In this document: positions 1,267 to 40,491 of the stretch, piece after piece
Layout: every line of letters starts with the position of its first letter
Numbering within the stretch: the stretch's first letter is position 1
Origin: Candidatus Zixiibacteriota bacterium
GTDB lineage: Bacteria > Zixibacteria > MSB-5A5 > JAABVY01 > JAHJOQ01
DNA: 55,149 nt
Direction of reading: 5' to 3'
Assembly: GCA_018820315.1 (NCBI GenBank)
Contig: JAHJOQ010000147.1
Coordinates: 1 to 55,149 of the forward strand
The notes under the pieces: generated by a model
What the model saw: only the letters and a program-made list of their open reading frames with translations
Told to the model about the DNA's origin: nothing
The model's database searches: none
Translations under genes and position numbers: made by a program

Positions 1267-3588
1267 TTGAATTCTCGCGGAACGGACTCCAAACCCTGCA
1301 TTGCTACTGCAGCTATTTTGCTGGCAGTAGCGATTGCGATTTTTGCGTTGCCTGCGGCTTTGTTTGCGCAGGACTATTCGATTTCATCGGTCGATGTCAG
1401 AGGGAACAGGACGGTCGATCAGACGCTCATTATGAGCGTGTCCGATCTTCCAGTCGGATCCATATTAACCTCGACTGCCACGCAGGATGCGATCAGAAGA
1501 GTCTATTCTCTTGGGTTGTTCAGCGATGTCAAGATCGAGGGGGATCGCTCCGGCGACAATATCGCCCTACATATCGTTGTGAAGGAGTTCCCGCGTCTCA
1601 AAGAGGTCCGATACGAGGGCAACGACAAGGTCAACGATGACGACCTCGACGAGGCTCTGCAGATTAAGATCGGTCAGGTGGCCACACCGAATCTTCTCCA
1701 GCTGACAGTCAATAGCATTCTCGACCTCTATCGCGAGAAGGGGTATTTCCTTGCCGAAGTCAAGCATGAGGAAGAGATTGACTTGGAGAAGGGGATTGCG
1801 GTCGTCAAATTCAAGATCAAGGAAAATGCCAAGATCAAGATTAAGGCGATCGAGTTCGAGGGCAATGTTGCGTTTTCCGATGGCGATTTACGCGGCAAGA
1901 TGTCGAACAAGCCGAAGAGTTTCTTTCGTGGCGGTAGTTTCAACAAGTCGAAATATCCCGAGGACAAAGAGAAAGTCGTCGAATTCTATAACGAGAAGGG
2001 TTATATCGACGCGCGAATTATGGGGGATACGTTGATACTGGTGGAGGATCAGAAGAAGCTGATTATCCGCATCGAAGTCGAAGAGGGGCTTCGATACAGA
2101 TTTGGCAATACGACATTTTCCGGTCATAAGCTGTTTAATGACGAGCATCTCGCCTCCAAACTGAAGTATGATGAGGGGGATGTCTACAACCGCGAAAAGT
2201 ATGAAGAGTCTGTTGGGGAGCTCTATTCGATCTATCAGGAAGAGGGCAATATCCACGCGCGGATATTTGACAATATTTCGACAACAGATTCGACGGTCGA
2301 TATCGCATTCGAGATATCCGAGGGGGTACCTGCCAAGATAAACCTGGTTCAGATTGAGGGGAATTCGAAGACCAAGGAGAAGGTGATCCGGCGTGAGTTG
2401 TTTTCGTCGCCGGGGCAAGTTTTCAGGCGTTCGCTCCTTATGAGATCAGTCAGAAACGTCATGGTTCTCAATTACTTCGAGAATGTCGAGCCGGACTTCA
2501 AGGTGCTTGAGAACGGCGACGTCGATCTGATCCTGAAAGTCACCGAGAAGCCGACAGGCCAGTTCAATGTCGGCGCCGGATATTCCGGCCAGGATAAATT
2601 TGTCGGTACGCTTGGACTTGGAATCCCGAACTTCAGAGGCAATGGTCAGAATGTAGATATCAAGTGGGAGTTCGGAGGACGGAGATCATCATTCTCGCTT
2701 GGCTTCACTGAGCCGTGGCTGCTCGACTCTCCGACATCGCTCGGTATAGACCTTTACAGCATCAACAGAAGATGGTATGAAGATTTCACGGAAGGGCGCA
2801 GAGGTTTGGGATTGCGGCTCGGACGGAGACTGCGGTGGCCGGATGACTATTTCGGTGTCTATTGGCGCTACCGTGCCGAGGACGTCCGGTATTACGAATT
2901 CTCAGATACTTACAAAGCACAGACGATCGATGATGCGACGAGCCTGACGAGATTCGATGAGGACTGGCAGAGGACTTCATCGATGACTGTTACGGTGACG
3001 CGAGATTCCCGAGATCTTTCGCAGTTTGCTACCGCTGGTTCGGTTGTCAGCCTTTCTGGCGAATATTCCGGTGGTCTGCTTGGCGGTGATTGGCGATACA
3101 ATAAGTTCATACTTCAGGTTTCGAAATTCCAGAAAGTGTTCTGGAAGTTCGTCATTGCAGCAAAAGCAAGATATGGTCTAATCTTCGCTCCGGAAGGTGA
3201 TTCGAAAGTGCCGTATTCGGAGCGATTCTCTCCGGGAGGGACCGACCTTGACGGATTCATAAGAGGTTATGACGACGGCAGGGTGACTCCACGCACGGCG
3301 TCTGGGGCATATCTTCGAGGCAGATCGATGGCGGTGTATAATGCAGAATTGCAGTTTCCACTTGTCGCGCAGCAGGTCTATCTGCTTCTATTGGCTGACG
3401 CAGGAAACTCATGGCTCGAACCGAAAGACTTGCGTCCATTTGATTCCAGGTCGCTATATGGATCGTATGGTTTTGGCTTCAGGCTCGTTGTGCCGGGGAT
3501 CGGGATCATCGGCTTCGATTTCGCGCGCGGGATAAGCGGCGCGCAGAATGAATGGAAACCGCATTTTCAGATAGGAACAACATTCTGA
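1267..3588 (+). CDS. bamA: Outer-membrane protein assembly factor BamA
   Basis: BamA folds and inserts beta-barrel proteins in the outer membrane. The 773 residues comprise a signal peptide (1-34, predicted cleavage LFA|Q35), five POTRA domains starting near residues 36, 109, 188, 275 and 356, each with a V/I-x-x-x-GN-like core, and a C-terminal barrel from about 430 ending in Phe. The conserved L6 loop motif IRGY is at 665-668. The start is TTG at 1267, 4 nt after rplU; no ATG precedes the signal peptide. skp and lpxD follow, the usual outer-membrane biogenesis neighbourhood. After cleavage the mature N-terminus would be Gln (see findings). Confidence 0.95.
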   Translation: MNSRGTDSKPCIATAAILLAVAIAIFALPAALFAQDYSISSVDVRGNRTVDQTLIMSVSDLPVGSILTSTATQDAIRRVYSLGLFSDVKIEGDRSGDNIALHIVVKEFPRLKEVRYEGNDKVNDDDLDEALQIKIGQVATPNLLQLTVNSILDLYREKGYFLAEVKHEEEIDLEKGIAVVKFKIKENAKIKIKAIEFEGNVAFSDGDLRGKMSNKPKSFFRGGSFNKSKYPEDKEKVVEFYNEKGYIDARIMGDTLILVEDQKKLIIRIEVEEGLRYRFGNTTFSGHKLFNDEHLASKLKYDEGDVYNREKYEESVGELYSIYQEEGNIHARIFDNISTTDSTVDIAFEISEGVPAKINLVQIEGNSKTKEKVIRRELFSSPGQVFRRSLLMRSVRNVMVLNYFENVEPDFKVLENGDVDLILKVTEKPTGQFNVGAGYSGQDKFVGTLGLGIPNFRGNGQNVDIKWEFGGRRSSFSLGFTEPWLLDSPTSLGIDLYSINRRWYEDFTEGRRGLGLRLGRRLRWPDDYFGVYWRYRAEDVRYYEFSDTYKAQTIDDATSLTRFDEDWQRTSSMTVTVTRDSRDLSQFATAGSVVSLSGEYSGGLLGGDWRYNKFILQVSKFQKVFWKFVIAAKARYGLIFAPEGDSKVPYSERFSPGGTDLDGFIRGYDDGRVTPRTASGAYLRGRSMAVYNAELQFPLVAQQVYLLLLADAGNSWLEPKDLRPFDSRSLYGSYGFGFRLVVPGIGIIGFDFARGISGAQNEWKPHFQIGTTF

Positions 3589-3629
3589 GTTCAGATTGAT
3601 AAAGATTTGATTTCTAAGGAGGAAGTGAC

Positions 3630-4175
3630 GTGAAGATAGTGAATGGTTACAAGTCTGTGCTGATGATCTTTCTGGCGATGGCATTCGTGTTGTCTATCGC
3701 TCCCGACGTGATGGCACAGGAGGGAAGGATTGTCTACATCGATTCGTACAGAATACGGCAGGAATACAAGGAATTTCAGGACGCTCAGACCGCATTCAAT
3801 ACTGAGATTGACGAGTGGAATCAGGAAGGTTTTGACCTGCAGCGTGAGCTCGATTCACTGAAAGTCGATCTTGAGAAAAAACGCCTGTTCTACAGTCCAG
3901 ACAAGCTTGCCGAAACTCAGGACGTGATCGCAACCAAGGAAGCGGCTCTACAGAAGTTCACCAATGACATTTTCGGGCCGAACGGCAGGGCGGAACGACG
4001 CAATCAGGAACTGACGCAGCCGCTGCTCGATAAGGTGACGGCTGTGCTCGAAAAGATCGCAATTGAGAACAACTACTTGTATATTCTCGACGCAGTTAAC
4101 GGCAACATCGCTTACGCAAAGAAGACGCTCGATATCACGGACAAGGTGCTGGAAGAATTAGCCGACTTGCAGTAG
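3630..4175 (+). CDS. skp: Periplasmic chaperone of the Skp/OmpH family
   Basis: This 181-residue protein has a signal peptide cleaved at VMA|Q30, then the Skp/OmpH pattern: an opening strand RIVYIDSYRI, a long charged helical hairpin (about residues 45-125) and a closing segment with NYLYILDA. Skp trimers hold unfolded outer-membrane proteins on the way to BamA. The start is GTG at 3630, with TAAGGAGG 7 nt upstream. bamA ends 41 nt before it and lpxD begins 1 nt after its stop, so the three genes are co-transcribed. Sequence identity in this family is low; context makes the call firm. The mature N-terminus is Gln. Confidence 0.9.
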   Translation: MKIVNGYKSVLMIFLAMAFVLSIAPDVMAQEGRIVYIDSYRIRQEYKEFQDAQTAFNTEIDEWNQEGFDLQRELDSLKVDLEKKRLFYSPDKLAETQDVIATKEAALQKFTNDIFGPNGRAERRNQELTQPLLDKVTAVLEKIAIENNYLYILDAVNGNIAYAKKTLDITDKVLEELADLQ

Positions 4176-7267: not shown

Positions 7268-10066
7268 CTATTTAGCCAAGAGCATTTTCTTCGTCTGGGT
7301 GAAGTCAGTCGTCTCCAACCGATAGAAATAAACTCCCGACGCAACAGGGTTGCCGCCATCATCGGTGGCATCCCAGATTTCCCGATGGGTTCCTGCTGTC
7401 GACTCGCCGTCTACGAGTGTGCGAACATTCTGGCCCAGCAGGTTGTAGACCGACAGTCTGACATGACTCGCCGATGGCAAGTTATATGATATGACTGTAG
7501 TCGGGTTGAATGGATTCGGATAATTCTGCGCAAGGCTGTAGTCAATTGGCTGCAATCCTGCAGCGGTCGCCTTTGTCGAAAGCTGAGTCAATCCGAATAC
7601 ATTGCCATTGCCGGTCCATGTGATGTCAGGATACACCCTAACCTTGTTGACGCAGATGGAGAATGGTTCTTCACCTGTCGGATAACCGGCTGTGGCATCA
7701 TCAAGATTGTCCTGCCCGTACACTGGCGTGAACCTCAACATTCCGTCCATATAGACGCCGCGTCCGCAGAGAACTTGGTCGGCACTGTACGCCTCAATTA
7801 CGCTGTTGTTATCGATGATCGAGCCATCGACTTTGATGTCAGAGCCATATAGCGACATCCATGTGCGGGATGGCGTTACATCGCGATCCGAATTCGCCAA
7901 TGGTTTGGCAAGGCCATCCGGAGCGGGAGGAGGAGTATCCCATCCGGGATAGATGAGAGCACCATCGCATGACGACTTAATCCAGTAGCCGAACAATTCG
8001 CTCAAATCAGTCAGTGTGTTGAAGGGCTCTTTGCCGGGCACCCATACCTGCCCGCCGTTGTCGAAGCCGATGGCAATCTCAATACAATCGAGAATCGTGG
8101 CAAAACCGACTTCAAGAGGCAGCGTTTGAACCGGCCAGTAACTTACGAGATTCCATCCCGTGTAAATGTCGATGTACTCCGACGGATCAATTGTCTCTCC
8201 GCATATTTCAAGATCCCAGGCGCAATGCATCTTCAGCCAGTAACCGTGGAAATAGTCGACATACGGCAGCGTCGAGTACTGAGGCAGGAATGGATCGTAG
8301 GTCATCGCTCCCCGATCGAATCCGAGAATGACGTCCACGCATTCGCATTTGTCGAGATGGCTGAGCACAAAGTCACTTGTCAGTTCAGTGTAATTGAGAT
8401 TCCATGAAATCAAGTTCCATCCCTCGTGAAGGTGGATGATTTTGCAGGTATGGAATCTACAGAGCTCGAAGCTGTCACCGTTCGATGTCCAGTATATGAC
8501 AGGATCGGTGAACACTTCGACGTCATTGATCGTGAACGAAATCTGATCGCCCGGCTCAGCTCCTTCATCCAGATTCAGCGTCACGAAATCATCTCTATAA
8601 ATCGGCATGAAGCCGAATGACCCGTCGGCCCGAACGACGTCCTGACCGCACAGAACACCATCTGGGTCGTATGCTTTGATAACGTCTCCCTCGCTAAGCA
8701 AGACTCCGTTCAGCTTCGGGCACCTGCAGTAGACGTTGATCCATTCGTTCGTTGGGTGAATTCCTTCGTCTGTCCACTCTTTATATGAGAAATTCTCCGC
8801 CATCTGCATCTCATCGGCAGAATTCATGAACCATGCCTGTATAGTGTCGATCCCGACACTGTTTCCGGTGTAGACGAAATCCGCCTTGCCATTGCCATCG
8901 GTCATCACGGCATCAACAAGTCCGGAGTGTGGGCCACCGATGATTTCGAAGTTGACCTCTCTATCCGCGACCGGATTGGCGTCCTCGTCATTGACAGTAG
9001 CCGTCACGGTGTGCTGCGTCCCGACTGGATTGGTGGCGAATGTCGGCGACAGCAGGCAGCCTTCCCCGATGATTGCGGGAACTGTGAGGTAGAACGCTCC
9101 GAAGAAAATATTGTCGTCATTGGACGGATTCGAAGTATTCACCGTGATTTGAACATCGCCTTGCTGGACAAAGGGGATCAGATCGTAGAGCTCATCGTCG
9201 TAATCAAAATCGAGAGGTGGGCTGAATGGGTCAGGCGGATTTGCGGGATCATCATCGAGACCACCGACCGTGATGAGGGCACCGTTGCCGTAGTCATTCC
9301 AATCCGGAGATATACCATCATCCTGACCGCCCGCTGAAGATGAAAGCCGCGATCCGTTGACATCTACGAGACTAAACTGAACATCGTGATCGGGCATCTG
9401 GTAACCATATGAGATTCCAAGTGACATTGTCACAACGGAACTTGGATCTGCTAAATCGAGAGGCTCAGCGAGCCCAATCAGAAACTGATCACCAGCGACA
9501 TCCTGTGCACCGAAGAGCAATATTGCGGTGGCATCGTCCGTCTGATTAGGATCGTCGAAGATCACTGCAAGAATGTTGCCATCAACGATATCCGGGTCAG
9601 CCTCCCCAATCGCAAAAGGCACGCGTCCCGCCATAGCAGCGTCGAGAATTGGTTTGACCAGATCAGTGACGTCTGCAATATGATTGAATGAGCTGACATG
9701 ATTCGGAATGATATTATCCCACACGACGGGGACACCATTGATGGTCACATCGCCCGGTAGCAGACTGTAGTTGGACCATCCCGTAGTCGCAGTAGCGAAG
9801 ATAGCCTTACGTACGGTTGCGCCGACTGGCTTTTCAGCCTGCAATACTGCTGTCGGATTTCCCGAACTAACACCATCAATCGAGAGACTGATGCGCCCCA
9901 CTTCGGTAACAACCGGGTCAATTGAAGTTGCCCCATCCGGACTGAAAGCATCCCAGTCGAAGTCAGACGGAACAGTGCCAGGGATGTCCACGGCAGAGGC
10001 TGTAGACACACCGAACAACAGGGTGGTGATCAGCAGAGTTGTCCGGAGAAGTGAGCAGATATTCAT
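7268..10066 (-). CDS. Large secreted protein with Ig-like domain and type IX-like C-terminal sorting tail
   Basis: This 932-residue exported protein has a signal peptide at 1-25 (ASA|V26). An unfamiliar beta-rich N-terminal region reaches about residue 340. A bacterial Ig-like (Big_1-type) domain follows, then two regions with a repeated GWNLISW/GWNLVSY motif. The last 85 or so residues form a FlgD-like/T9SS type A-like tail: YPNPFNP, a VYNLLGQ strand, WDATDDGG, SGVYFYRL and a terminal KKMLLAK. In Bacteroidota such tails direct export through the type IX system. The start was set at ATG 10066, with AAAGGAG upstream, rather than at 10117. A promoter-like site about 455 nt upstream implies a long leader. 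Binding targets are unknown. Confidence 0.85.
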   Translation of the reverse strand: MNICSLLRTTLLITTLLFGVSTASAVDIPGTVPSDFDWDAFSPDGATSIDPVVTEVGRISLSIDGVSSGNPTAVLQAEKPVGATVRKAIFATATTGWSNYSLLPGDVTINGVPVVWDNIIPNHVSSFNHIADVTDLVKPILDAAMAGRVPFAIGEADPDIVDGNILAVIFDDPNQTDDATAILLFGAQDVAGDQFLIGLAEPLDLADPSSVVTMSLGISYGYQMPDHDVQFSLVDVNGSRLSSSAGGQDDGISPDWNDYGNGALITVGGLDDDPANPPDPFSPPLDFDYDDELYDLIPFVQQGDVQITVNTSNPSNDDNIFFGAFYLTVPAIIGEGCLLSPTFATNPVGTQHTVTATVNDEDANPVADREVNFEIIGGPHSGLVDAVMTDGNGKADFVYTGNSVGIDTIQAWFMNSADEMQMAENFSYKEWTDEGIHPTNEWINVYCRCPKLNGVLLSEGDVIKAYDPDGVLCGQDVVRADGSFGFMPIYRDDFVTLNLDEGAEPGDQISFTINDVEVFTDPVIYWTSNGDSFELCRFHTCKIIHLHEGWNLISWNLNYTELTSDFVLSHLDKCECVDVILGFDRGAMTYDPFLPQYSTLPYVDYFHGYWLKMHCAWDLEICGETIDPSEYIDIYTGWNLVSYWPVQTLPLEVGFATILDCIEIAIGFDNGGQVWVPGKEPFNTLTDLSELFGYWIKSSCDGALIYPGWDTPPPAPDGLAKPLANSDRDVTPSRTWMSLYGSDIKVDGSIIDNNSVIEAYSADQVLCGRGVYMDGMLRFTPVYGQDNLDDATAGYPTGEEPFSICVNKVRVYPDITWTGNGNVFGLTQLSTKATAAGLQPIDYSLAQNYPNPFNPTTVISYNLPSASHVRLSVYNLLGQNVRTLVDGESTAGTHREIWDATDDGGNPVASGVYFYRLETTDFTQTKKMLLAK

Positions 10067-14225: not shown

Positions 14226-14993
14226 ATGGTAACGCGAAGTTCAACACGGGGACTGGTGGCTCTGTCCATCTCAGTGATGGTGATGCTACTCAGTGCTGTC
14301 TGTCTGGCCGAAGACGACACAACTGCAGACAGTTCATCACACAATTCACTGACAGCGGGATCGAAGGCAATGCAGTTTCAGATCGATGACAATTTCCAGC
14401 TTAGTTCATTCGATGGCGCGACGATCTCTTTTAAGAAGTACTCATCAGCTAGATCGGCGAAGCGGTTAGGCCTCACTATTTCTGGCTCTTTGCTCGGAAG
14501 AGACACATATGATGACAATCTGTCTGGTATTCCTGGTCGCGTAGACACAGATCGATCGATAAGTACTCTCGGTTTGGATGCTCAATTGCTGTTTCTGTCA
14601 TATTCACAGGTGCGTAAATCGGCTTATTTCTACTATGGTTATGGTCCCATGATTGGGTATTCTCTGTCAGACAATCAAACAGAATCTGTCTTCATTCGGG
14701 AGAATCTAATCAGCAGAGTGACGGCTCTTGATCGCCAGTACGTTCTATCGGGTGGAGGAATCGCGATTATAGGTGTTGACTGGTTCGTAACTGATGGGCT
14801 AAGTCTGTCTGCGGAATACGGGCTATCGTTGATCTACAGGTACCTTGATAACATATATCGCTACGATTATATCAGGAGAGACTCGGAAACCGGGGATATT
14901 GTAGCTCAGGATTCAAGTCAGCGAGATGATTTTGAGAGAGGTGTGCTGGTGCAATCTCTTCCTGTCAAGTTCGGACTATCGGTTTACTTCTGA
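14226..14993 (+). CDS. Predicted outer-membrane beta-barrel protein, family unknown
   Basis: This 255-residue protein has a signal peptide (about 1-28, CLA|E29). An acidic Ser/Thr-rich linker follows, then alternating amphipathic strands rich in Tyr and Gly (FYYGYGPMIGYS, LSAEYGLSLIYRY) and a last strand ending LSVYF. A terminal Phe is the usual BamA recognition signal. This supports a small barrel of perhaps 8-10 strands. ATG 14226 was preferred to 14214 because GGGAGG precedes it closely. It stands alone between the sdh terminator and the convergent fumarase genes. No named family was recognised; the outer-membrane location is inferred from the strand pattern. Confidence 0.75.
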   Translation: MVTRSSTRGLVALSISVMVMLLSAVCLAEDDTTADSSSHNSLTAGSKAMQFQIDDNFQLSSFDGATISFKKYSSARSAKRLGLTISGSLLGRDTYDDNLSGIPGRVDTDRSISTLGLDAQLLFLSYSQVRKSAYFYYGYGPMIGYSLSDNQTESVFIRENLISRVTALDRQYVLSGGGIAIIGVDWFVTDGLSLSAEYGLSLIYRYLDNIYRYDYIRRDSETGDIVAQDSSQRDDFERGVLVQSLPVKFGLSVYF

Positions 14994-19396: not shown

Positions 19397-19421
19397 GTCA
19401 GACCTCCCTGGTTATCGTCGA

Positions 19422-20471
19422 TCACCGGTCAGCCAGCCGTTCACGGACGAGCTGCGCCCGTCTGCTGTCACGCTCAGATGGTGAAAGTTCTTCATTTAGC
19501 AATTTCTGCAAATGCGCTGGCTGAACCAGAAGCATTATCTCGTTGATCAGCCGGAGCGGGAGCATGTCGAGAATTCCCATTGCAACTCCCATCCTCATCG
19601 CAGAAAGCAGATTCATAGCTTCTCCGGACGACAGCACGCGGGCATGTTTCAGAATACCGTATGCGCGCCATATCTTGTCCTTTATCTCTTCTCCCGCATC
19701 CCTGATCAGAGTCGTGCGGGCATTTTCCTCGTGAGCCATCAATTGTCGAGTCACTTCTTCAAGCGACCCAATTATGTCTTCCTCTTTGCGGCCCAAAGTC
19801 GTCTGGTTCGAGACCTGGAAGATATTCCCCAGGACATCCGACCCTTCGCCATAAAATCCTCTCACTGCCAGACCGACCTTTGTAATCTGAGATAACACGC
19901 CGTCAATCTCATTCGTCAACACAAGCCCTGGCAAGTGTATTAACACTGACGCACGAAGGCCGGTTCCAACATTAGTGGGACAGGATGTCAGGAAACCGTA
20001 GTCGCTGCTGAAATCGTATTCGAGTTTGTTGCCCAGCTCGTGGTCAGTCCTTTCGGCATTATTCATCGCGGTCTGTATTTCGAGACCGGACTGGAAGGAT
20101 TGAATTCGTAGGTGGTCTTCTTCATTAATCATGATGGAGACCGATTCGTCATCTCTGACATACAGCGCGCGGTTCGTACTTGTCCTGAGAAACTCTGGCG
20201 AGATAAGGTGTCTCTCAATAAGGAAATTGCGATCGAGATCGTCAATTGTTTCCGACTCGTACAACTTGCCGATGTCAAGCATGCCTTTCTCTTCGAGGGC
20301 CGAGCGGACATATTCTTTGGCCTTGGCCTGCATTTCATCGGAAGCGCGGTCGGGGTAATGGATATCGGCGACGTTACGCGCCAGCCTGATGCGACTGGAA
20401 AGTACTATTGCGGCGTCTGTACCATCGGCTTGCAGCCATTTCGCAGGTTTATCTACCAGTTCTTCAAACAT
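19422..20471 (-). CDS. mcsB: Protein-arginine kinase McsB
   Basis: McsB phosphorylates arginines on proteins, marking them for ClpCP. The 349 residues show the phosphagen-kinase fold motifs SSRIRLARN, INEEDHLRIQ and the Cys-containing active loop SCPTNVGTGLRASV. The C-terminal RDSRRA (334-339) matches the RDxxRA motif that forms the allosteric pArg site of Bacillus McsB. Creatine/arginine kinases lack that motif, so this is a true McsB. ATG 20471 has AAGAGGA 4 nt upstream and was preferred to 20486. It lies 47 nt after mcsA and 25 nt before clpC. Confidence 0.95.
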   Translation of the reverse strand: MFEELVDKPAKWLQADGTDAAIVLSSRIRLARNVADIHYPDRASDEMQAKAKEYVRSALEEKGMLDIGKLYESETIDDLDRNFLIERHLISPEFLRTSTNRALYVRDDESVSIMINEEDHLRIQSFQSGLEIQTAMNNAERTDHELGNKLEYDFSSDYGFLTSCPTNVGTGLRASVLIHLPGLVLTNEIDGVLSQITKVGLAVRGFYGEGSDVLGNIFQVSNQTTLGRKEEDIIGSLEEVTRQLMAHEENARTTLIRDAGEEIKDKIWRAYGILKHARVLSSGEAMNLLSAMRMGVAMGILDMLPLRLINEIMLLVQPAHLQKLLNEELSPSERDSRRAQLVRERLADR

Positions 20472-20518
20472 AGTTCCTCTTACCAAAATATACCTTGCGT
20501 CAATATAGAGTGCAAGGA

Positions 20519-21022
20519 CTATTGCCCGCTTGAGACAATGCCCTTAATACGATCTCGCAATTCGGCAGCGAGTTCGAAGTTCTCAGACTGCACTGCGTCG
20601 CGCAACTCTTCCTGTAGCTTCCGTCCTTCCTTCAACGGCTTCATCTTGTCCGGTGAACCCCACGGTAGCTTCCCCGAGTGCCGATTGGATCCGTGGATCT
20701 TCCTTAGCAAGTCGTCCAGCGGTGCATGGAATGCACTGTAGCACCCACCACATCCGAAACGACCAGTCTTCGAAAATTCTGAGAATGTCAACCCACATTT
20801 CTGACACTCAAGTTGCTCCTGTCTATCAATACCCGTCGCAAGCGTTTTCTCCACCATGCTCGCCAGAAAGTCACCGAGAGGGAAGGGAGCGTTCTTGAGA
20901 GGATTCTCGAATCCTCTGCGAGACGCACAATTGGCACACAGGTCCAGAACGGACGTGTCGTTTCCCACGATCTGGGTCAGGTGTATTATGGCTTCGTTCT
21001 TCTGACAATCCTGGCACAACAT
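20519..21022 (-). CDS. mcsA: McsA-type zinc protein, activator of McsB
   Basis: This 167-residue protein has four Cys pairs (CQDC at 3-6, CANC, CQKC, CGGC) for two zinc sites. A basic linker and a C-terminal UVR motif (LRDAVQSENFELAAELRDRI) follow. That layout is McsA, which binds and activates McsB and contacts ClpC. It starts with GAGGAG upstream, 11 nt after lolD. In Firmicutes ctsR precedes mcsA; here the preceding genes are lysS and the Lol exporter genes, and no CtsR-like gene is in the window, so heat-shock control must work otherwise. Confidence 0.92.
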   Translation of the reverse strand: MLCQDCQKNEAIIHLTQIVGNDTSVLDLCANCASRRGFENPLKNAPFPLGDFLASMVEKTLATGIDRQEQLECQKCGLTFSEFSKTGRFGCGGCYSAFHAPLDDLLRKIHGSNRHSGKLPWGSPDKMKPLKEGRKLQEELRDAVQSENFELAAELRDRIKGIVSSGQ

Positions 21023-26916: not shown

Positions 26917-27837
26917 TCAGCGGCTGAGTAGGGCAAGTAAAACTTTGCCAACAGCGGCAAGGCTCGATGGACTGCATTTGTCGGGAGTATCGGCTTGAGT
27001 GTGCCAGGAAGGATAGTCGAAATCGATTATGTCGATTACAGGGATACCTTTTTCCAGAAAGGGGAGGTGATCGTCATAGACGGTGTGTTTGATGGAATCG
27101 ACAAAATGCGAAGCGCCCTGTTCTGCAGCTTCGCTCCAGACCTGGTCGACGATGCGCTTGGCGTACATATGAGAATATCGTTCACGGTAGATCCTCATAT
27201 CGGTTGCGCCGACCATATCCAGCAGAATTCCGAACGCGTAATGTCCCTGATCGATATTTTCAACGTAGTATTTAGAGCCGATGCAGTAGTAGTCCAGATT
27301 GCCCGACTCACCGTAATCTTCAGCATCGAAAAGCACGATGTCGACTCCATAGGGGCAGTCGATATGAGGCAGTAGATTTGCGAGCTCCATAAGTACGGCG
27401 CAGCCTGAAGCGCCATCATTGGCACCGAGAATCGGCTGATTCTGCAGTGCTACGTTCGGGTCCATGTCGGCATATGGCCTCGTATCCCAGTGGGCGCACA
27501 GGAGCACTCGCGGCAGACGACCCGGATTGAATCTGGCAATGATGTTGGTCAGATCGGAAAAAGTCGTATCGCTGATGGTGTCGGTGAACTCAAAATTCTG
27601 CAGTTCGACCGTATCGAGCCTTGTCTCGAAGAATGCCTTGAAGTACTCGAGTGCCTTTGATGCACCATCCGAGCCCGGATTCCTCGGTCCGAAGTCACAT
27701 TGCTCAGTGAGATAGACATAGGCGCGGTCACCGTCAAAAGTCACTTTGCCAGATCCGCAACCCGGTAAAGACATGACTGTGAAGAGAATCAACAGAACAG
27801 CAGCGACGAGCAGATTTGACCTTGAAGCATAGTTCAT
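26917..27837 (-). CDS. M28-fold glutaminyl cyclase (glutaminyl-peptide cyclotransferase) lipoprotein
   Basis: This 306-residue protein has a lipoprotein signal peptide (lipobox SLPGC, Cys27). The body matches bacterial M28-fold glutaminyl cyclases: AHWDTRPYAD (His116), GANDGASG (Asp141, zinc), FDAEDYG (Glu173 as general base, Asp174 as zinc ligand), ILLDMVG (Asp207), DDHLPF (Asp256 region) and WHT (Trp278-His279, zinc). The Trp-His pair and the Asp in DDH are features of cyclases rather than of two-zinc aminopeptidases. Such enzymes turn N-terminal Gln of exported proteins into pyroglutamate. The ATG overlaps the sprA stop by one base. An aminopeptidase remains possible. Confidence 0.82.
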   Translation of the reverse strand: MNYASRSNLLVAAVLLILFTVMSLPGCGSGKVTFDGDRAYVYLTEQCDFGPRNPGSDGASKALEYFKAFFETRLDTVELQNFEFTDTISDTTFSDLTNIIARFNPGRLPRVLLCAHWDTRPYADMDPNVALQNQPILGANDGASGCAVLMELANLLPHIDCPYGVDIVLFDAEDYGESGNLDYYCIGSKYYVENIDQGHYAFGILLDMVGATDMRIYRERYSHMYAKRIVDQVWSEAAEQGASHFVDSIKHTVYDDHLPFLEKGIPVIDIIDFDYPSWHTQADTPDKCSPSSLAAVGKVLLALLSR

Positions 27838-30800
27838 CAGAATCTGATTTCAACCCATATTCCGAGTTGGCGTACATGCGATTTGCGGCGAGACCTCTTA
27901 TCCTCGGTGTCGGACCAGCGCATCTGGAGTCCGCCTTGAATATTGCTCGAGAAGCTGTAAGTTGCTCTCGGCGCGACTGTGAAATCGGTGCGTTCGTTCC
28001 CGGGGCTCACATTACCCTTGGTGTCTTCCTGCTCAGATTTAGTAGTCCGCTGGGAGATGTCAATGGTAAGAGACATCGTGCTCTGAATCTTCAGTCGACC
28101 TAAAAGTGGAATCTTAAACCCCGTCGGCGCTCTGAAACTGTACCTGTTGGAAAGCGTAATGCTCTTGGACCAGTTGCGCTGCTCGCGCGATACACCCTGC
28201 GTGATCGTCTTGTTGATCGATTGGGAAACCTCATATCGGCCTTGAGTTTGAACCGACTTCAGCCACGTCACATTGAATCCGAGCAGAGGACCGAAATTGT
28301 GCGTTATGTTCTCTTTTTCTTTATCACCGCTGTTCTTATTGATGCTCTCATCGAGCTTCTTGGAGTAGCTGCTGTTGACCGCGAAAGACTTGAATAGCCA
28401 ACCGATGATGCGAAAACGCTCCAGTCGCCCTATGTTGACGCTGAGGTCCGGAAATGAAGTCGAGATTGTCTCAAGATCATTCGCGCGTGACGTCTGAGTT
28501 CTCTTGGAATAACCGGAACTGATCTTGGAACCAAGTATGAAATCGATACCGCTCTTGGCGGAATATGTTTCGGATTTCGAGTCAGTGAAGCGACTAACGC
28601 TGCTTCCAGATGATTGGATGATCTCAACTCCAGGATCCTTGGTGAAGCCGAACTGGAACTTCAATGACGGACGATCTACCAGTCCTGAGCTCGAGAAGCG
28701 ATTGTCCTGACTGTAACTGAGAGTGACGGGGTCGATTCTGTTGGAGATAGGTCGAATGATTAAGAGGAACGGCTTGAACAGAACGAAGTCCCCGCCTTTT
28801 CCGGAGCCTCCTTTACCTTTCGAACCCGCGCCGAAGAACCTCTGAGAGTCGAACTTGCTTGACAAGGTCCAGTTCGAACTGGTCGATGCGAGTCTTGAAC
28901 CATCTTTGTAACGCTTAGGATCGGAGTTCTCATCATAAGAAGACTTGTAACTCAGCTTGGTCGACAAGAAATTGAATATCTTTGGTTCGTAACTTCCAGT
29001 GAAGGACTGGCGGCGCACCAACTCGACGCCGAGTTTGAATTCCTTCGGATTGAAAGAGAACTTAAGGGTCTCGGGATCCCTCAGGTCTCTGTCTGTCGAG
29101 AAATTGAAGCTCAGCGGCAGAGATCCGAAGAGATTATATTGCGCTGAACCCGATCCCGTGAATCGTCGATCATATGTCGAGAATATCCGGCCTTCATTGT
29201 TAACGCTCAGAGTCTGCTTCCGCGAGACATCACCTTTGAAGCTGAGCCTGCTCGGGGAATATCCCAGCGCCGTATTTGTGATGGCAGATGGGAAGAACGG
29301 AATGAATGAAGTCCAGCCGAATATCCGTATCGTCTTGTTGCCCGGGTTCAGAGAATAGTCGGCGTGAGCGGCATAATTCTCGCTTTCACTTTTCGGCTGT
29401 GTGGGAGATTGTGCATTAGAAGAGGAATATGAAAAGCTCGTGTTGATCTTGTTGAGAGTGAGGTTCCAGAGCCAATTGTTCGTCTTCTTTGCAAATTTCG
29501 ATGATATCCGGAAGTTGTTTGAATAGTTGCGAGAAGTCTCTGCTTCACGATCTTTCTCGGTTATGACGATGTCGGAGCCTGACTTCAATCTCGGGACTCT
29601 TACGCTCTTGCTCCACGAGTAGGATATGGGTATCCTTGCACCCCACTGCGGGGGAAGGAACTTGTCGAAGTTGAAGCTCGTGGAAATTGACAGGGATGTT
29701 TCTTCACTCCCCGCTCCCAGATTGTTCCTGTCCGCTGCCGTAAGCTGCCTGAAGAAAGCGTCTTTCTTCCTGTAGTTCATGGAGAATGATCCAATATCAG
29801 CGATACTTGTTGTGACGCTGATTCGTTTCGCGACTCCCTTGTCGCGCCTGACGTCAGTGACGCGCAATTCATCCAGCCAAATTTCACCCGATTCCGGATC
29901 GGGCGGAGCGTCGGCGGACCTCTGCACGCCCGCCGCAAGATAGATAATGTTCGTGAGCCGAGGGTTGCCTTTCACCCCGTAGCGGCCGACTGACAGGTAA
30001 TTCGTATCTGCAATTTCCTGTCTTAACTTGAGCAGGCTGTCTTTGACCTGTGTTATTGCATCGAAGTCGATGTCGACCCAGTTGCGCTGATCCCAGTAAT
30101 TCTTGCCGAGCGATGTGCTGTCCGTGCCGTAGATTCGCGTGTGGAATTCATAGAAATTCTGAGAATCGGTACCCATGCGGAAGATGAATTCAATCGATGA
30201 ATCGGCAGTAGTCGCGCTATGGACATACATCTGAAGTCGCCTGTAGCCGGCGTAGTTCTCTCCCCGGAACAATATGCGTTCGGCGATTCCTCTGGTACCG
30301 GGGTCAAAATTGAAGAACCTCAACCACAGCGACTGCTCTTTCTCGCGTGTCTCGTTGACTTTGTCGTAGTATCCCTCCACATCAGGAGGAGGAGTGTAAA
30401 CTGTGTCCGCAAATTCTTCTGTGTTGATGACAGAGACGTCGAACCTTGTCTCCTCATCTTCAGATGCACCCGCAGACATCGATGCCTGAGGAAGGGGAGT
30501 CTCGAGAGGCTGAACGAGCCATCTTGTGGACACAAGATCCATTGAAGCAAACTCGAGCGAATCTCTGTGAGAGAATCCGGTGAGTATGATACGCGCGAAG
30601 GACACTTGGTCCAGTGTGGCCTCGCCGGCTGAATCGTCAGGCTCATCGAGTGGGATCCTGTATGTTACCCAGCCTCGTTCATTCTGCGAATTCTCAACGA
30701 GATACTTGGTGTCGTTGGCGAAGTCCAGGACGTATTCATAGTAGTTGTTGCGAGTGTTGAGTGACTTATCTCGATTGATGTCCTCAGAGTCAGGATAATA

Positions 30801-33728
30801 GCCACGAGCCGGATCGCTGGCATTATTCTGAGTTCCGTTTATTCCCTCGTAGTTGTCCTTATCGTCATCCGAATAGAACCAGTTGTCCAGGGACGGATCG
30901 GCTGCCGTGCTTCCCAGGCTGTCCCTCTCCTGGGCATCCGTCCAGCCGTCAAGTCCAACATCCTCTTCATCTTCGAGTATGTCATTGAAGTTCTTGTCCT
31001 CCGTGTCCCACTTCCTGTTCCCGTTGATGTCTTCCGTGATCTCACCGAGATAGATTCGCAGTTGTCCATGCGTAGGATCGACGAACGGGCGGCGCATGCG
31101 GATTTCCAGAAACTGCGTTCTGCTCTGATCCCATGATCCCCGCCCCAAAGGTCTCATGATACCTGCCCACGACTCCTCAAGCGCTGTAGAGTCGGGATCA
31201 ATGCGGACTATCATAGTATTCGTGCGGTTGTCTCGATCCTGTACGTCACGATTCCAAATATCGGTAACGGGTGTCTCGGACCAGGGATTATACCAAATCA
31301 ATCTGGAACGAGGATTGATAGAATCATTTGTGAAGAAGCTGGGGTTCACAGTCGAAGTGTAGCCGCTGCCATCAAGCGGGGGAGAGGCCGTAGTCCACGC
31401 ATGCCGCAGGACACTGAGGCCATAAGCCTCCCGGGCACCCTCGAAGTCATCAATAAATGCTTCACCGAGCGTGTTGGGGTTCGGCACACTCTGCGCGATC
31501 TCTCCGGAGATAGTCATGCGGGAATCTGTCGTCGCTTCAAGCAGCGGTAACATGTCAAACATGTCGGTCAGAATCGGCAGCTCAAAACTCGTTTGGAAAT
31601 CGCTGTCCCATACAAGGTACTTCGACTCCTCCTGCCCGACTCTCGGTTTCCTGTCTGTCGATTTCTCGCTCTTGTAAAGGATCGTTGTTCCGAACTTGAA
31701 ATCCTTAGAGAGCACGTACTCGAGTCTTGCTCCGAACAATGATTTCTTTTCCGCAGCGATGAATGGCTGATACTCAAAGTCGACAGTGACATTGGCATTC
31801 GGATCCAGTACCTCTTCGCTTCGGAATATTATGCGCCCAAGATCGTAGTATATTGTGTAGTCGGTATCCTTCGTGAGTCGCCGTCCGTTGAGAGTGACGA
31901 CCTCCGAACCCTCGATGATATTGATCTTGCCGAGCGAAAACTCGGTCTGTCGCTCCGCGAGGCTCACTGCAATGTAATACTTCGAAGCTTCGCGAATGTC
32001 CTGGGAATTGACAGAATTGTATATTTCAGGGACTACCTCGTTGAGAGAATCGGGGTTGTTAAACGGTTCTCGATTCGGGAAGAAGAGAAATCCTCTTTCC
32101 AAAAACACCGTTTGATCCGTGATGTCAAGCTTTCCGTCGGGGTTCGGATTGCCATTGAGGTCCTGCTGATCAAGGCCCATGAGCTGGAGGTATGGCGTTC
32201 CGTCCTGGTGATCCAGGTTTGCGTCTTCACGCGTTTCCTCTCCCTGTTTGCCCTTGTATATCTTGATCTCTAATCCGTCGGGGTCGATGTTGCGAGCACC
32301 GAGAGAATAGACTCGTTTCCATTCATAGTGGAACGTTGGTACGTCGGGCGGAGCGCTGGCTCTTTTGATGAGCTTGAGATGAAGCGTGTCTGGATTCGAC
32401 AGGCTGCCGACCTCATACCTTGAGCCACCACGCTCGACAGTCATCCAGCAAGCGAGATCCTGCTGAACGCCCACGTAGGTAAGCATCTCCAGATACAGTT
32501 CGTTTTCATAGAAGAAGTATTTGTTTCGGTCAATCTCCAGCCAGTCGGTCTCATAGATTTCTGAGGAATATTGGGTCGTGTCGCGGGGATCGATATATGC
32601 AAACCCATGAATCTTCTGTACCTCGAGATCCGTTCTTGTCTCGTTTATGTAAAGCCTGAAATCTACGATCTTGTCGACACCGCGAAAGAGATCGTAGTCT
32701 GTATCGCCGACATCGGCCGGTCCGCCGATTCTTCCGAGATCAAAGAAAGTATTCGTCAGGTAGTCATAGTCTCGAATATATTTGACACTCCTCTGCGCAC
32801 CTGCGGTGAAACTTGATTTTTCGGTGTTCCCCTTCTCCTGTGACGTGATTACCGTCATGCCGAGGTTGCCAAGCTGCGCGGTTGCTTTGATACCAAATAG
32901 TCCCTGCACTCTCGAAGAGTACCCAACGAACTGCGTATTCGGCAATGCGAGGTTTGTGTTTCCCGCCTCGATAGTCTGCAGAATCTCATCCTCGGTCCCC
33001 TGGTATCTGATCTGAATGCGATTATCGAGATCCGTCTGCCTTTTCGAGTCCTGGTCAACTTTGACCTCGATCTTTGAACCGATATTGCCCGTGATCTTGA
33101 ACTGCGAGACCTGCTCCATGTTCAGGGAGGGGAATTTGCTCTGCTTGAATGCTGCGACCTGTGTTTTGTCATCCCATTGGCTTCGGCCATCAAAGCTGAC
33201 CCTATAATATCCGTTGACTCGAAGACCGACACCACCTTCGCCGATCAGTGCCTCGACTGCTCTGGGTACGTGAATGGGGATGCTGAAAGTGAGCAGGCCC
33301 TGAGCTTTGTCCGCCTGATCTTTCGCTATCGATCTCATCAGGCCTATTTTCCAGTAGTCGCTCGCATTAGTCTCGTTTCTCTGGCGGTTGAACTCGCGTG
33401 GCTCCACAGAGGTCGGATAGTGGATAGCGATAGGCGCGAATGTTGGGTGAAAGGAATATGTCCTGGTGAAAGTGAACATCAGAGTGCCCGGCTCAATTCT
33501 GGTCTTGTCGACTGGTCTGACTTTGCCGGCGTCAAGCCAGGAGTATTTCTTGATAGCGATCGACATACCCGACCAATGCGCGGGAGCCGGGATAGGAACA
33601 TTTCGAAGTGATTTGGTATCCAGGGGAATAGACAGCCATTGCCCAACAGCGGAACTGCCCGCCGAGATCATCGACAGGAGCAAGACAAGACATAAAAGCC
33701 TGATGTTCAAAGCGGGTCTTAATCGCAA
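27837..33728 (-). CDS. sprA: Giant outer-membrane protein of the SprA family (type IX-type translocon)
   Basis: SprA is the giant barrel through which Bacteroidota type IX secretion moves proteins across the outer membrane. This 1963-residue homologue has a signal peptide (AVG|Q30) and many paired-strand blocks. It shows the family landmark NTLGEAFIDDFEGARE, an acidic Asp/Asn-rich insert near 900-985 (DINGNRKWDTEDKN), long Ser/Lys/Asn-rich barrel strands in the C-terminal half, and a terminal Phe. It is somewhat shorter than typical Bacteroidota SprA (over 2200 residues). The start is TTG 33728: an in-frame stop lies directly before it and a GAGG is 10 nt upstream. murB precedes it and the glutaminyl cyclase follows by overlap. 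Confidence 0.88.
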   Translation of the reverse strand: MRLRPALNIRLLCLVLLLSMISAGSSAVGQWLSIPLDTKSLRNVPIPAPAHWSGMSIAIKKYSWLDAGKVRPVDKTRIEPGTLMFTFTRTYSFHPTFAPIAIHYPTSVEPREFNRQRNETNASDYWKIGLMRSIAKDQADKAQGLLTFSIPIHVPRAVEALIGEGGVGLRVNGYYRVSFDGRSQWDDKTQVAAFKQSKFPSLNMEQVSQFKITGNIGSKIEVKVDQDSKRQTDLDNRIQIRYQGTEDEILQTIEAGNTNLALPNTQFVGYSSRVQGLFGIKATAQLGNLGMTVITSQEKGNTEKSSFTAGAQRSVKYIRDYDYLTNTFFDLGRIGGPADVGDTDYDLFRGVDKIVDFRLYINETRTDLEVQKIHGFAYIDPRDTTQYSSEIYETDWLEIDRNKYFFYENELYLEMLTYVGVQQDLACWMTVERGGSRYEVGSLSNPDTLHLKLIKRASAPPDVPTFHYEWKRVYSLGARNIDPDGLEIKIYKGKQGEETREDANLDHQDGTPYLQLMGLDQQDLNGNPNPDGKLDITDQTVFLERGFLFFPNREPFNNPDSLNEVVPEIYNSVNSQDIREASKYYIAVSLAERQTEFSLGKINIIEGSEVVTLNGRRLTKDTDYTIYYDLGRIIFRSEEVLDPNANVTVDFEYQPFIAAEKKSLFGARLEYVLSKDFKFGTTILYKSEKSTDRKPRVGQEESKYLVWDSDFQTSFELPILTDMFDMLPLLEATTDSRMTISGEIAQSVPNPNTLGEAFIDDFEGAREAYGLSVLRHAWTTASPPLDGSGYTSTVNPSFFTNDSINPRSRLIWYNPWSETPVTDIWNRDVQDRDNRTNTMIVRIDPDSTALEESWAGIMRPLGRGSWDQSRTQFLEIRMRRPFVDPTHGQLRIYLGEITEDINGNRKWDTEDKNFNDILEDEEDVGLDGWTDAQERDSLGSTAADPSLDNWFYSDDDKDNYEGINGTQNNASDPARGYYPDSEDINRDKSLNTRNNYYEYVLDFANDTKYLVENSQNERGWVTYRIPLDEPDDSAGEATLDQVSFARIILTGFSHRDSLEFASMDLVSTRWLVQPLETPLPQASMSAGASEDEETRFDVSVINTEEFADTVYTPPPDVEGYYDKVNETREKEQSLWLRFFNFDPGTRGIAERILFRGENYAGYRRLQMYVHSATTADSSIEFIFRMGTDSQNFYEFHTRIYGTDSTSLGKNYWDQRNWVDIDFDAITQVKDSLLKLRQEIADTNYLSVGRYGVKGNPRLTNIIYLAAGVQRSADAPPDPESGEIWLDELRVTDVRRDKGVAKRISVTTSIADIGSFSMNYRKKDAFFRQLTAADRNNLGAGSEETSLSISTSFNFDKFLPPQWGARIPISYSWSKSVRVPRLKSGSDIVITEKDREAETSRNYSNNFRISSKFAKKTNNWLWNLTLNKINTSFSYSSSNAQSPTQPKSESENYAAHADYSLNPGNKTIRIFGWTSFIPFFPSAITNTALGYSPSRLSFKGDVSRKQTLSVNNEGRIFSTYDRRFTGSGSAQYNLFGSLPLSFNFSTDRDLRDPETLKFSFNPKEFKLGVELVRRQSFTGSYEPKIFNFLSTKLSYKSSYDENSDPKRYKDGSRLASTSSNWTLSSKFDSQRFFGAGSKGKGGSGKGGDFVLFKPFLLIIRPISNRIDPVTLSYSQDNRFSSSGLVDRPSLKFQFGFTKDPGVEIIQSSGSSVSRFTDSKSETYSAKSGIDFILGSKISSGYSKRTQTSRANDLETISTSFPDLSVNIGRLERFRIIGWLFKSFAVNSSYSKKLDESINKNSGDKEKENITHNFGPLLGFNVTWLKSVQTQGRYEVSQSINKTITQGVSREQRNWSKSITLSNRYSFRAPTGFKIPLLGRLKIQSTMSLTIDISQRTTKSEQEDTKGNVSPGNERTDFTVAPRATYSFSSNIQGGLQMRWSDTEDKRSRRKSHVRQLGIWVEIRF

Positions 33729-37693: not shown

Positions 37694-39058
37694 ATGAAGA
37701 AATTTGGTTTAATACTGTTTGCGCTGCTGCTGATACCGGTAATATCAGCCCAGGCGCAGATTGCTCTCACAGTTTATAATCAGGATCTGGGACTAGTCAG
37801 AGAGCACCGCGATCTTCAGTTCCAGAAAGGGCAGTTTGATCTTGAATTTACGGATATTCCCAGCTCGATAGACCCCACATCCGTTCATTTCAAGCTGCTC
37901 GATAAGCCGGACGCGGCTGTCCTCCTTGAACAAAACTATCAATATGATTTGGTGAGCGCGTCGAAAATTCTCACGAAATTCATCGGCAGCGAGATCGAGA
38001 TTACGGCTGTGGCCGGTGACCAGGGAAAGTTCTATTCAGGAGAGCTTCTTGCATTCGATGGCAACAACGTGACCCTCAAGACAACGGACGGTGGGGTCAA
38101 AGTCATAGAAATGAAGTGGATTTCTGACGTTTCATTTGAGAAGCTGCCTGAGGGCCTCATCACCAAGCCGACACTTGTCTGGAGATTACTCTCCGATGTG
38201 GCCGGTAAGCAGAAGGCGGAAGTCTCATATCTCACCCAAAACATCAACTGGCATACGGAATATGTGGCAGTTGTCTCCGACGATGACAGCAAACTCGATC
38301 TCTCAGGTTGGGTTTCTGTCGATAATCGCACGGGGGCTACCTATAAGGATGCCAAATTGAAGTTGATCGCGGGCGATGTGAATGTCGTCCAGCCGCCGCC
38401 ACCATCGTTCAGACGTGACAAAGGCTATGCTCTTGCCGCAATGTCGGCGGAGGATGCCTCATTCGAAGAGAAGTCATTCTTTGAGTATCATCTCTACACT
38501 TTGCCGAGAACAACGACAATTGCGAACAATGAGATCAAGCAGATTTCTCTGTTTGAACCGGCGACAACTCCGGTTGTGAAGGTGTTTGAATATGAGGGTT
38601 GGCGCTATCCGAAGGATATCAGGATCGTACTTGAATTCACGAATTCGAAAGAGGCTGGACTCGGGATGCCTCTGCCAGCCGGCAAATTGCGAGTGATGAA
38701 GAGAGATACCGACGGTCTGATGGAGTTTGTGGGTGAAGACATGATAGATCATACGCCCAAAGACGAAGACCTGAAGGTGTTTCTCGGGAATGCATTCGAC
38801 TTAGTAGGTGAGAGAAATGTGATGGATAGAAAGAAGATCACGGACAGAATGACCGAGGAGACCATTGAAATAAAGCTGAGAAATCATAAGGACAAAGATG
38901 TTACGATAAAGGTTGTCGAGAAATTCGGCCGGTACTGGGAGGTTCGCGAGTCGAACTACGAGTTCACCAAGAAGGATGCATCTACTGCCGAGTTTCTGGT
39001 GCCGGTCAACGCCGATGGTGATTCAACACTCTCAATCATCGTGCGTAAATGGTATTAG
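37694..39058 (+). CDS. Exported DUF4139 domain protein
   Basis: This 454-residue protein has a signal peptide (1-21, AQA|Q22). An N-terminal beta domain about loss or gain of LTVYNQDLGLV-type strands leads into the DUF4139 region (from about 190, VSYLTQNINWHTEYVAVV, then a long beta-rich stretch to WEVRESNYEF). The family is common among FCB-type and planctomycete bacteria; its role is unknown and probably periplasmic or surface. ATG 37694 was chosen because GGGAGG lies 9 nt upstream and the signal peptide begins there. The mature N-terminus is Gln. Confidence 0.88.
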   Translation: MKKFGLILFALLLIPVISAQAQIALTVYNQDLGLVREHRDLQFQKGQFDLEFTDIPSSIDPTSVHFKLLDKPDAAVLLEQNYQYDLVSASKILTKFIGSEIEITAVAGDQGKFYSGELLAFDGNNVTLKTTDGGVKVIEMKWISDVSFEKLPEGLITKPTLVWRLLSDVAGKQKAEVSYLTQNINWHTEYVAVVSDDDSKLDLSGWVSVDNRTGATYKDAKLKLIAGDVNVVQPPPPSFRRDKGYALAAMSAEDASFEEKSFFEYHLYTLPRTTTIANNEIKQISLFEPATTPVVKVFEYEGWRYPKDIRIVLEFTNSKEAGLGMPLPAGKLRVMKRDTDGLMEFVGEDMIDHTPKDEDLKVFLGNAFDLVGERNVMDRKKITDRMTEETIEIKLRNHKDKDVTIKVVEKFGRYWEVRESNYEFTKKDASTAEFLVPVNADGDSTLSIIVRKWY

Positions 39059-39110
39059 ATCGGGTAATATCATGATTGGTATTTGTTTCACAATCTTTCT
39101 GAGATTTGCT

Positions 39111-39139
39111 TTGACAAATTCCGGGTCTTTTGTTAGTAT
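39111..39139 (+). promoter_or_regulatory. Predicted promoter of the TPR protein gene
   Basis: TTGACA (39111-39116), 17 nt, then TAGTAT (39134-39139). The leader is about 30 nt and includes the GGGAGG ribosome-binding site. Confidence 0.65.
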
Positions 39140-39174
39140 GACGCCCGATAATTAATGCAAACCGGGAGGTTGGA

Positions 39175-40491
39175 ATGAGAACTGTTATAACGATATTCCT
39201 GGCGTTGACTATAGTCGCATCAGCATCAGCTCAACGGCTAACCTATGATGCCCTTGTTCGTTCCGCCAAGATTTACCTTCAGGAAGCTCCGAAGGACTAT
39301 GTGAAGGCGGAAGAGAAGCTCAGACAGGCTATAGACGAGTTTCAAGACAAACAGCCAGTCGAAGCTTACTTCGGACTCGGTGCGTTGCAGGCTGAGAAGA
39401 AGCGTTATGCGGAGATGAACGAGAATTTCGAAGCAGCCCTGAAGATTTGCGCCGAAGCTACTGACAAGAAATTGAAGAAGCGGTGCGACAAAGAGAACAT
39501 TTCGGAGACCATTATCTCAATTCGTCTCAGCTCCTGGATTGACGAGTTTAATAGTGGTGCTTCGGTGCTGGCGGGTGCGGTCGACCTTTGGCCTGATCTC
39601 GAAGACGCTGAGTCAGAAGATGACACTCTCGACATATTGGATGAGATCGACGCTACATATCGGTCTGCGCTCCAGAATTTTGTAAATGCCAGTATCATAA
39701 TTCCTGACTCGGCTCAAGCTTGGATCAACGCAGGAATCACGTACTACAATCTCGGCAAAGTCAAGAAGACCCTTGGCGAACCAGATGCAGAGACGGCACT
39801 GAAAGATTCCGCTATCATTGCCTACGAGACCGCCATAGAGGTACATCCGGAAAACTTCGATCTGCTGTCAAACATGTCAACGATATACTTCGAGCTCAAG
39901 AATTGGGATGCATGTGCTGCGACTTTTGGCAAAATGGCCGCCCTGCAGCCGGATAATGTCTCGGTCCTTAGCAATCTCTCGATGCTCCTCATGGAGCTCG
40001 ATTCAAAGGATACTCTCAACACTCTGAATCTGGGTGACTCCATTACTTTCGTGTTCGATAGAATAATAGAACTTGATCCCACAAACGTTGACGCTTTGAG
40101 TCAGCGGGCCTTCGCGACCATTACCGAGAGCATCGGCATCAATGACTCAATCAGTGTACTCAGAGGTCTCGACGAGAACGTGCATAAGTCAGAAATTCAG
40201 GCGCTGACTGAGGTAAGGAATGCGGCATACCGTAGCGTCATTGATGATTTTACTGTGGTAGCAGAAACAGATCCCGGCAACTATGACGCATGGTATTGGA
40301 TGGGTAACTGTTATTATTTCCTCGAGGAATATCAGAAATCGCTGGAGTGTTACGAGAAGGCATTAGCAATCAAGCCGGATGCCAAGGAGGTTTTGGAAAT
40401 CCTCGCGCCGCTCTATTTGAAGCAGGGGGATCGGAAGAAATCTGATGAAGCTCAGAAGAAGTATGAGGAGTTGGTAGGGGAATCCGGTTAG
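39175..40491 (+). CDS. Periplasmic tetratricopeptide-repeat protein
   Basis: This 438-residue protein has a signal peptide (1-19, ASA|Q20) and about seven TPR or TPR-like units. The clearest are at AWINAGITYYNLGKV, LLSNMSTIYFELKNWDAC, VLSNLSMLLMEL and AWYWMGNCYYFLEEYQKSLECYEKAL. TPR arrays are protein-protein scaffolds; the partner is unknown. It has its own promoter and a strong terminator, so it is a single-gene unit. The mature N-terminus is Gln, as for the neighbouring DUF4139 protein. Confidence 0.88.
   Translation: MRTVITIFLALTIVASASAQRLTYDALVRSAKIYLQEAPKDYVKAEEKLRQAIDEFQDKQPVEAYFGLGALQAEKKRYAEMNENFEAALKICAEATDKKLKKRCDKENISETIISIRLSSWIDEFNSGASVLAGAVDLWPDLEDAESEDDTLDILDEIDATYRSALQNFVNASIIIPDSAQAWINAGITYYNLGKVKKTLGEPDAETALKDSAIIAYETAIEVHPENFDLLSNMSTIYFELKNWDACAATFGKMAALQPDNVSVLSNLSMLLMELDSKDTLNTLNLGDSITFVFDRIIELDPTNVDALSQRAFATITESIGINDSISVLRGLDENVHKSEIQALTEVRNAAYRSVIDDFTVVAETDPGNYDAWYWMGNCYYFLEEYQKSLECYEKALAIKPDAKEVLEILAPLYLKQGDRKKSDEAQKKYEELVGESG

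What the first reader, a model, noticed from the sequence alone, without database searches (positions are those of the whole stretch)
1267..40491. Q-rule pattern: Gln follows the predicted cleavage site in five of eight signal-peptidase-I substrates
Reading the signal peptides by eye, BamA (LFA|Q35), Skp (VMA|Q30), SprA (AVG|Q30), the DUF4139 protein (AQA|Q22) and the TPR protein (ASA|Q20) would all have Gln as first mature residue. The exceptions are the sorting-tail protein (V26), the small barrel (E29) and the unknown exported protein (S23). By chance Gln would be expected at a few percent of such sites. In Bacteroidota this is the known Q-rule, in which a periplasmic-side glutaminyl cyclase makes pyroglutamate. 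A matching cyclase is encoded in the window. If the organism is outside Bacteroidota, this extends the rule.
Basis: partly seen in the sequence, partly recalled or inferred. Interest (0 to 1): 0.75.

Follow-up and report, generated by a model that had tools for sequence, protein, structure and literature searches.

The report
Partial Q-rule outside the phylum Bacteroidota
In a bacterium from a small phylum other than Bacteroidota, about a fifth to a third of exported proteins start with glutamine after their export tag is cut, and it carries the matching glutamine-capping enzyme beside a secretion gene; this is a weaker, looser form of a rule described as exclusive to Bacteroidota.

Summary
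Without the window and paralogues it is 9/55 (0.19, CI 0.10-0.33), against Prevotella 0.57 and E. coli 0.07. So enrichment is real but partial, and the window exaggerates it. The organism lies outside Bacteroidota. The M28 lipoprotein is an orthologue of Bacteroidota glutaminyl cyclase with QC-specific residues in 32/32 phylum copies sampled, present in 72 of 84 near-complete phylum genomes. Not foreseen: it sits directly behind sprA, the T9SS translocon gene, across the phylum and in three others. Coupling is loose: a lineage with cleanly deleted QC keeps high Gln (0.46), one with QC has almost none (0.04). Best reading: an inherited QC/pyroglutamate system with variable Gln usage, not the strict rule. 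Pyroglutamate itself is untested.

The parts
1267..1371 (+). BamA signal peptide (1267-1368) and +1 Gln codon (1369-1371)
   Evidence: translation; blind predictor picks LFA|Q; Omp85/POTRA
3630..3719 (+). Skp/OmpH signal peptide and +1 Gln codon (3717-3719)
33639..33728 (-). SprA signal peptide and Gln30 codon (33641-33639); cleavage SSA|V or AVG|Q ambiguous
37694..37759 (+). DUF4139 protein signal peptide (from ATG 37694) and +1 Gln codon (37757-37759)
39175..39234 (+). TPR protein signal peptide and +1 Gln codon (39232-39234)
7268..10066 (-). T9SS type A sorting-tail protein, signal peptide from ATG 10066, +1 Val (exception)
   Evidence: TIGR04183 42.9 bits against cut-off 23
14226..14993 (+). 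small barrel-like exported protein, +1 Glu (exception)
42992..43633 (+). unknown exported protein, +1 Ser (exception); signal peptide starts at an internal ATG
26917..27837 (-). glutaminyl cyclase orthologue (M28/type II), N-terminal membrane segment with LPGC (Cys27)
   Evidence: (1e-49 to Bacteroidota QC chains)
27837..33728 (-). SprA/Sov T9SS translocon, directly upstream of and overlapping the QC gene by one base
   Evidence: TIGR04189 712.6 bits against cut-off 200; synteny

Best explanation
Exported proteins of this non-Bacteroidota diderm are cut by signal peptidase I, which in about a fifth to a third of them exposes Gln. A type II glutaminyl cyclase, translated right behind sprA and probably anchored as a lipoprotein on the periplasmic face, then closes the new N-terminal Gln to pyroglutamate, shielding it from aminopeptidases. 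Shown here: the Gln enrichment, the QC orthology with QC-type active-site residues, the sprA-QC linkage and inheritance within the phylum. Inferred: cleavage sites, enzyme activity, location and the protective purpose. How much of the proteome uses Gln varies by lineage.
For: Gln at +1 in 17/77 against 4.4% Gln at +2 to +41 of the same proteins (p=4e-8), and 9/55 without the window and paralogues (p=6e-4). Lipoproteins show 0/40 Gln after the Cys, internal [AVST]xA motifs 2.8%. The null test of the estimator gives 0.04 (max 0.10). QC full-length to Bacteroidota QCs; Asp141-Gly142, Glu173-Asp174 and Trp278-His279 in 32/32 phylum copies, where own M28 paralogues have Asp-Asn, Glu-Glu, Tyr-His, the differences PMC7948796 gives between QC and aminopeptidase. 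QC tree: phylum clade 0.88, Bacteroidota clade 1.0. A relative with QC, G014, has 10/19 Gln.
Against: Own rate is half or less of a Bacteroidota control. Relatives without this QC keep Gln (G102 0.46, G027 0.30), and two with QC show almost none (G016 1/27, G034 0/9). Samples for relatives are 9-27 proteins. My predictor is home-made, not SignalP. The lipobox has an unusual Pro, and the residue matching PgTrp193 is Tyr. No biochemistry.
Confidence: 0.62

Rival explanations
1. Gln at +1 is favoured for reasons independent of this QC (signal peptidase preference, spontaneous cyclisation, or another unknown cyclase); the QC acts on few substrates.
For: Clean QC deletions between sprA and comEA (G048, G102, G021) or sprA and a selA-like gene (G027, G085, G055, G091), yet Gln 0.46 in G102 and 0.30 in G027; QC-bearing G016 has 1/27.
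Against: QC kept in 72 of 84 near-complete genomes with an intact active site; three of twelve QC-less genomes carry the unrelated plant-type QC against 3/72 (p=0.04); relics after recent loss would also keep Gln.
Confidence: 0.22
2. A full Q-rule as in Bacteroidota operates, and my sample underestimates it.
For: 5/8 in the window; misassigned sites such as SVA|Q and AIA|Q raise the estimate from 0.22 to 0.29; PMC5837995 says predictions underestimate.
Against: The same pipeline gives 0.57 for Prevotella and 0.51 for relative G014; the upper confidence limit for this genome is 0.40; Asp 0.19 is nearly as common.
Confidence: 0.1
3. The M28 protein is an ordinary aminopeptidase and the Gln pattern is unrelated.
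For: M28 family includes aminopeptidases.
Against: QC-specific residues, single-zinc signature and best matches all QCs; own M28 paralogues differ at each of them.
Confidence: 0.04
4. Chance in eight proteins read by eye.
For: Window rate exceeds the genome rate.
Against: Enrichment persists outside the window, p=6e-4.
Confidence: 0.02

Closest known systems
Bacteroidetes Q-rule with PgQC (PMC5837995, PMC10653852)
   Same: Gln enriched at +1 of SPI substrates; orthologous type II QC with the Glu-Asp variant and an N-terminal lipoprotein-like anchor; T9SS present.
   Different: Outside Bacteroidota; 0.19-0.29 instead of about 0.7; QC beside sprA; QC and Gln not strictly coupled among relatives.
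Plant-type (type I) QC systems of Flavobacteriia
   Same: Three relatives without type II QC have a plant-type QC, resembling the two QC lineages of Bacteroidota.
   Different: The window's genome has no PF05096 match.
Scattered high Q-values outside Bacteroidetes (Ignavibacterium 77%, some cyanobacteria; PMC5837995)
   Same: Precedent for high Gln at +1 outside the classic group.
   Different: There reported as 'no obvious pattern' with no enzyme or gene context; this phylum is not discussed in the sections read.

Membership tests
Bacteroidetes Q-rule | Most SPI substrates (above 48%) have Gln at +1 | tested here: not met
   0.29 (0.19-0.40), or 0.19 without window and paralogues
Bacteroidetes Q-rule | Gln at +1 enriched over background | tested here: met
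   17/77 vs 4.4%, p=4e-8; 9/55 outside the window, p=6e-4
Bacteroidetes Q-rule | Organism belongs to Bacteroidota | tested here: not met
   Own phylum holds only 84 near-complete genomes, all one class; QC tree separates the two groups
Bacteroidetes Q-rule | Exposed Gln is cyclised to pyroglutamate | not testable with these tools
   needs N-terminal mass spectrometry
Type II (animal/bacteroidal) glutaminyl cyclase | Zn ligands Asp, Asp/Glu, His and catalytic Glu and Asp | tested here: met
   D141, D174, H279, E173, D207 in 32/32
Type II glutaminyl cyclase | Single-zinc signature (no Asn/Asp after first ligand) and Trp before the His ligand | tested here: met
   Gly142 and Trp278; paralogues Asn and Tyr
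Type II glutaminyl cyclase | PgTrp193 counterpart | tested here: not met
   Tyr184 by alignment; Y, F or W in the phylum. Described as conserved in bacteroidal QCs, not as catalytic for the whole family
Type II glutaminyl cyclase | Lipoprotein anchor in the inner membrane | tested here: inconclusive
   LPGC with unusual Pro; most relatives have a standard lipobox
Type II glutaminyl cyclase | Enzymatic QC activity | not testable with these tools
   needs purified protein

The most novel reading that the evidence does not exclude
Pyroglutamate capping of exported proteins is ancestral to several phyla around Bacteroidota (this phylum, Latescibacterota, Gemmatimonadota, Neomarinimicrobiota), inherited in an operon with the T9SS translocon gene sprA; some lineages then lost the QC but kept Gln, implying an undescribed second cyclase or a QC-independent benefit of Gln.
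Probability: 0.35. Interest if true: 0.66.

Novelty: new variant of a known kind. Interest (0 to 1): 0.5.

Why it matters
A 2023 paper still calls the rule exclusive to Bacteroidetes (PMC10653852). A phylum in which Gln usage runs from near zero to Bacteroidota levels, with natural QC losses and a plant-type replacement, would let the cause and benefit of N-terminal pyroglutamate be tested by comparison. The sprA-QC neighbourhood reopens the question, set aside in PMC5837995, of a link between QC and type IX secretion.

Tried and rejected
A first crude signal-peptide scan missed BamA and Skp and gave false hits; replaced by a region model checked on E. coli K-12, where it gives sites I recognise as the known ones for OmpC, LamB, MalE, TolB and CpoB. 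Link between Gln and T9SS cargo: only 3 sorting-tail proteins in the own sample, none with Gln; too few to judge. Spread to other phyla by Q-value: the loci of Latescibacterota, Gemmatimonadales and Neomarinimicrobiota hold too few exported proteins. Naming the phylum failed: near relatives are left out of the named collection; one class, 2-5 Mb and 42-65% GC would suit Zixibacteria, but that is from memory and untested. A first QC alignment by regular expression found nothing and was redone.

Full report
Observation. The window is contig C147 of a 3.78 Mb, 173-contig genome. Translation reproduces all eight signal peptides and the five Gln residues at the positions given. To avoid reading Gln into the sites, I wrote a signal-peptide model (n-, h-, c-region and positions -3 to -1) that never looks at +1, and checked it on E. 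coli K-12, where its sites agree with those I know for OmpC, LamB, MalE, TolB and CpoB. It finds the eight window proteins and puts Gln at +1 in four; SprA is ambiguous between SSA|V and AVG|Q. Five of eight has a chance probability of 1.3e-6 at 3% Gln.

Genome-wide test. In 950 kb of the genome (25%) 77 SPI substrates were predicted; 17 have Gln as first-choice +1 residue. An expectation-maximisation estimate that shares out ambiguous sites gives 0.29 (bootstrap 0.19-0.40); the same procedure on randomised +1 letters gives 0.04, at most 0.10. Prevotella sp. (Bacteroidota) gives 0.57 and E. coli 0.07. Within the same proteins Gln at +2 to +41 is 4.4% (p=4e-8). Dropping paralogues and the window leaves 9/55, 0.19 (0.10-0.33), p=6e-4. 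Lipoproteins have Gln after the Cys in 0/40, and internal [AVST]xA motifs are followed by Gln in 2.8%. Against E. coli directly (2/28) the difference is only suggestive (p=0.09), because that control is small. So the enrichment over the organism's own background is real and position-specific, but the level is well below the Bacteroidota rule (PMC5837995: above 48% in 332 of 334 species, mean 71%), and the window is a Gln-rich sample of its genome. Asp (0.19) is the second residue.

Which organism. The own phylum, as held, has 84 genomes of at least 90% completeness, all in one class; a draw without that limit gave 119 genomes, again one class. That excludes Bacteroidota, which has thousands of species in several classes (general knowledge). 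I could not name the phylum.

The cyclase. The protein at 26917-27837(-) is M28 and aligns over its full mature length with the solved Bacteroidota QCs (E 1e-49). Residues that PMC7948796 uses to tell QC from aminopeptidase were checked in 32 phylum copies: Zn ligands Asp141, Asp174 and His279, catalytic Glu173 and Asp207, Gly142 after the first ligand and Trp278 before the His are invariant, whereas four M28 paralogues of the same genome have Asn, Glu and Tyr at the discriminating places. PgTrp193 is Tyr here. NCBIfam has no QC-level hit. The tree puts the phylum's QCs in one clade (0.88) apart from the Bacteroidota clade (1.0), so inheritance rather than recent transfer from Bacteroidota is the simplest reading. 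QC is found in 71 of 84 near-complete genomes, and in one more cut by a contig end.

Gene context, not noted in the finding. The QC start codon overlaps the end of sprA (TIGR04189, 712.6 bits against a cut-off of 200). sprA lies directly upstream of QC in 25 of the 29 best phylum loci, and also upstream in named Latescibacterota, Gemmatimonadales and Neomarinimicrobiota loci. In Prevotella the 50 kb around QC hold no sprA match. I found no paper that reports the linkage, which is not proof that none exists.

Is Gln tied to this QC? In several relatives the gene is cleanly absent: sprA is followed at once by comEA (G048, G102, G021) or by a gene with a SelA-like motif (G027, G085, G055, G091; motif read by eye), while G016 shows sprA-QC-selA-like. 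In the QC-less genomes searched for M28 domains, the strong matches lie in open frames of 640 residues or more, not QC-sized ones. Yet G102 has an estimated Gln rate of 0.46 and G027 0.30, while QC-bearing G016 has 1/27 and G034 0/9; QC-bearing G014 has 10/19 (site lists). Three QC-less genomes (G022, G058, G098) carry the unrelated plant-type QC, and G022 has 0.39. Plant-type QC is commoner among QC-less genomes (3/12 against 3/72, p=0.04). The samples are small, 9 to 27 proteins a genome, but the two-way exceptions argue against a strict rule.

Conclusion. In this genome it is a partial preference, not a rule. The best mechanism is post-SPI cyclisation by the sprA-linked QC; activity, location and pyroglutamate are inferred.

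Noticed in passing
window 26917-33728 (-); L008-L036, L077, L080, L084, L089: sprA (T9SS translocon) and glutaminyl cyclase are neighbours across this phylum and in Latescibacterota, Gemmatimonadales and Neomarinimicrobiota loci; possible functional link between pyroglutamate formation and type IX secretion.
   Followed up: partly
L189 (G102), L188 (G048), L198 (G021), L190 (G027): Clean QC deletion behind sprA in lineages of which two sampled ones (G102, G027) still show Gln at +1.
   Followed up: partly
L104-L107 (G022, G020, G058, G098): Plant-type QC (PF05096) in six genomes of the phylum, three of which lack the M28-type QC: an apparent non-homologous replacement.
   Followed up: partly
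window 16940-21022 (-): ClpC-like ATPase, McsB-like protein arginine kinase (NF002194 427 bits, over its cut-off) and an McsA-like protein in one operon of a diderm bacterium; the arginine-phosphorylation degradation pathway is best known from Firmicutes.
   Followed up: partly
L036 (G024 QC locus): This QC orthologue has no lipobox but an apparent SPI signal ending GFA|Q, so it may itself be a Gln-starting exported protein.
   Followed up: no
own genome sample, loci L042, L054, L068, L073: Asp is the second commonest +1 residue (about 0.19), often as Asp-Asp or Asp-x-Asp; no explanation.
   Followed up: no
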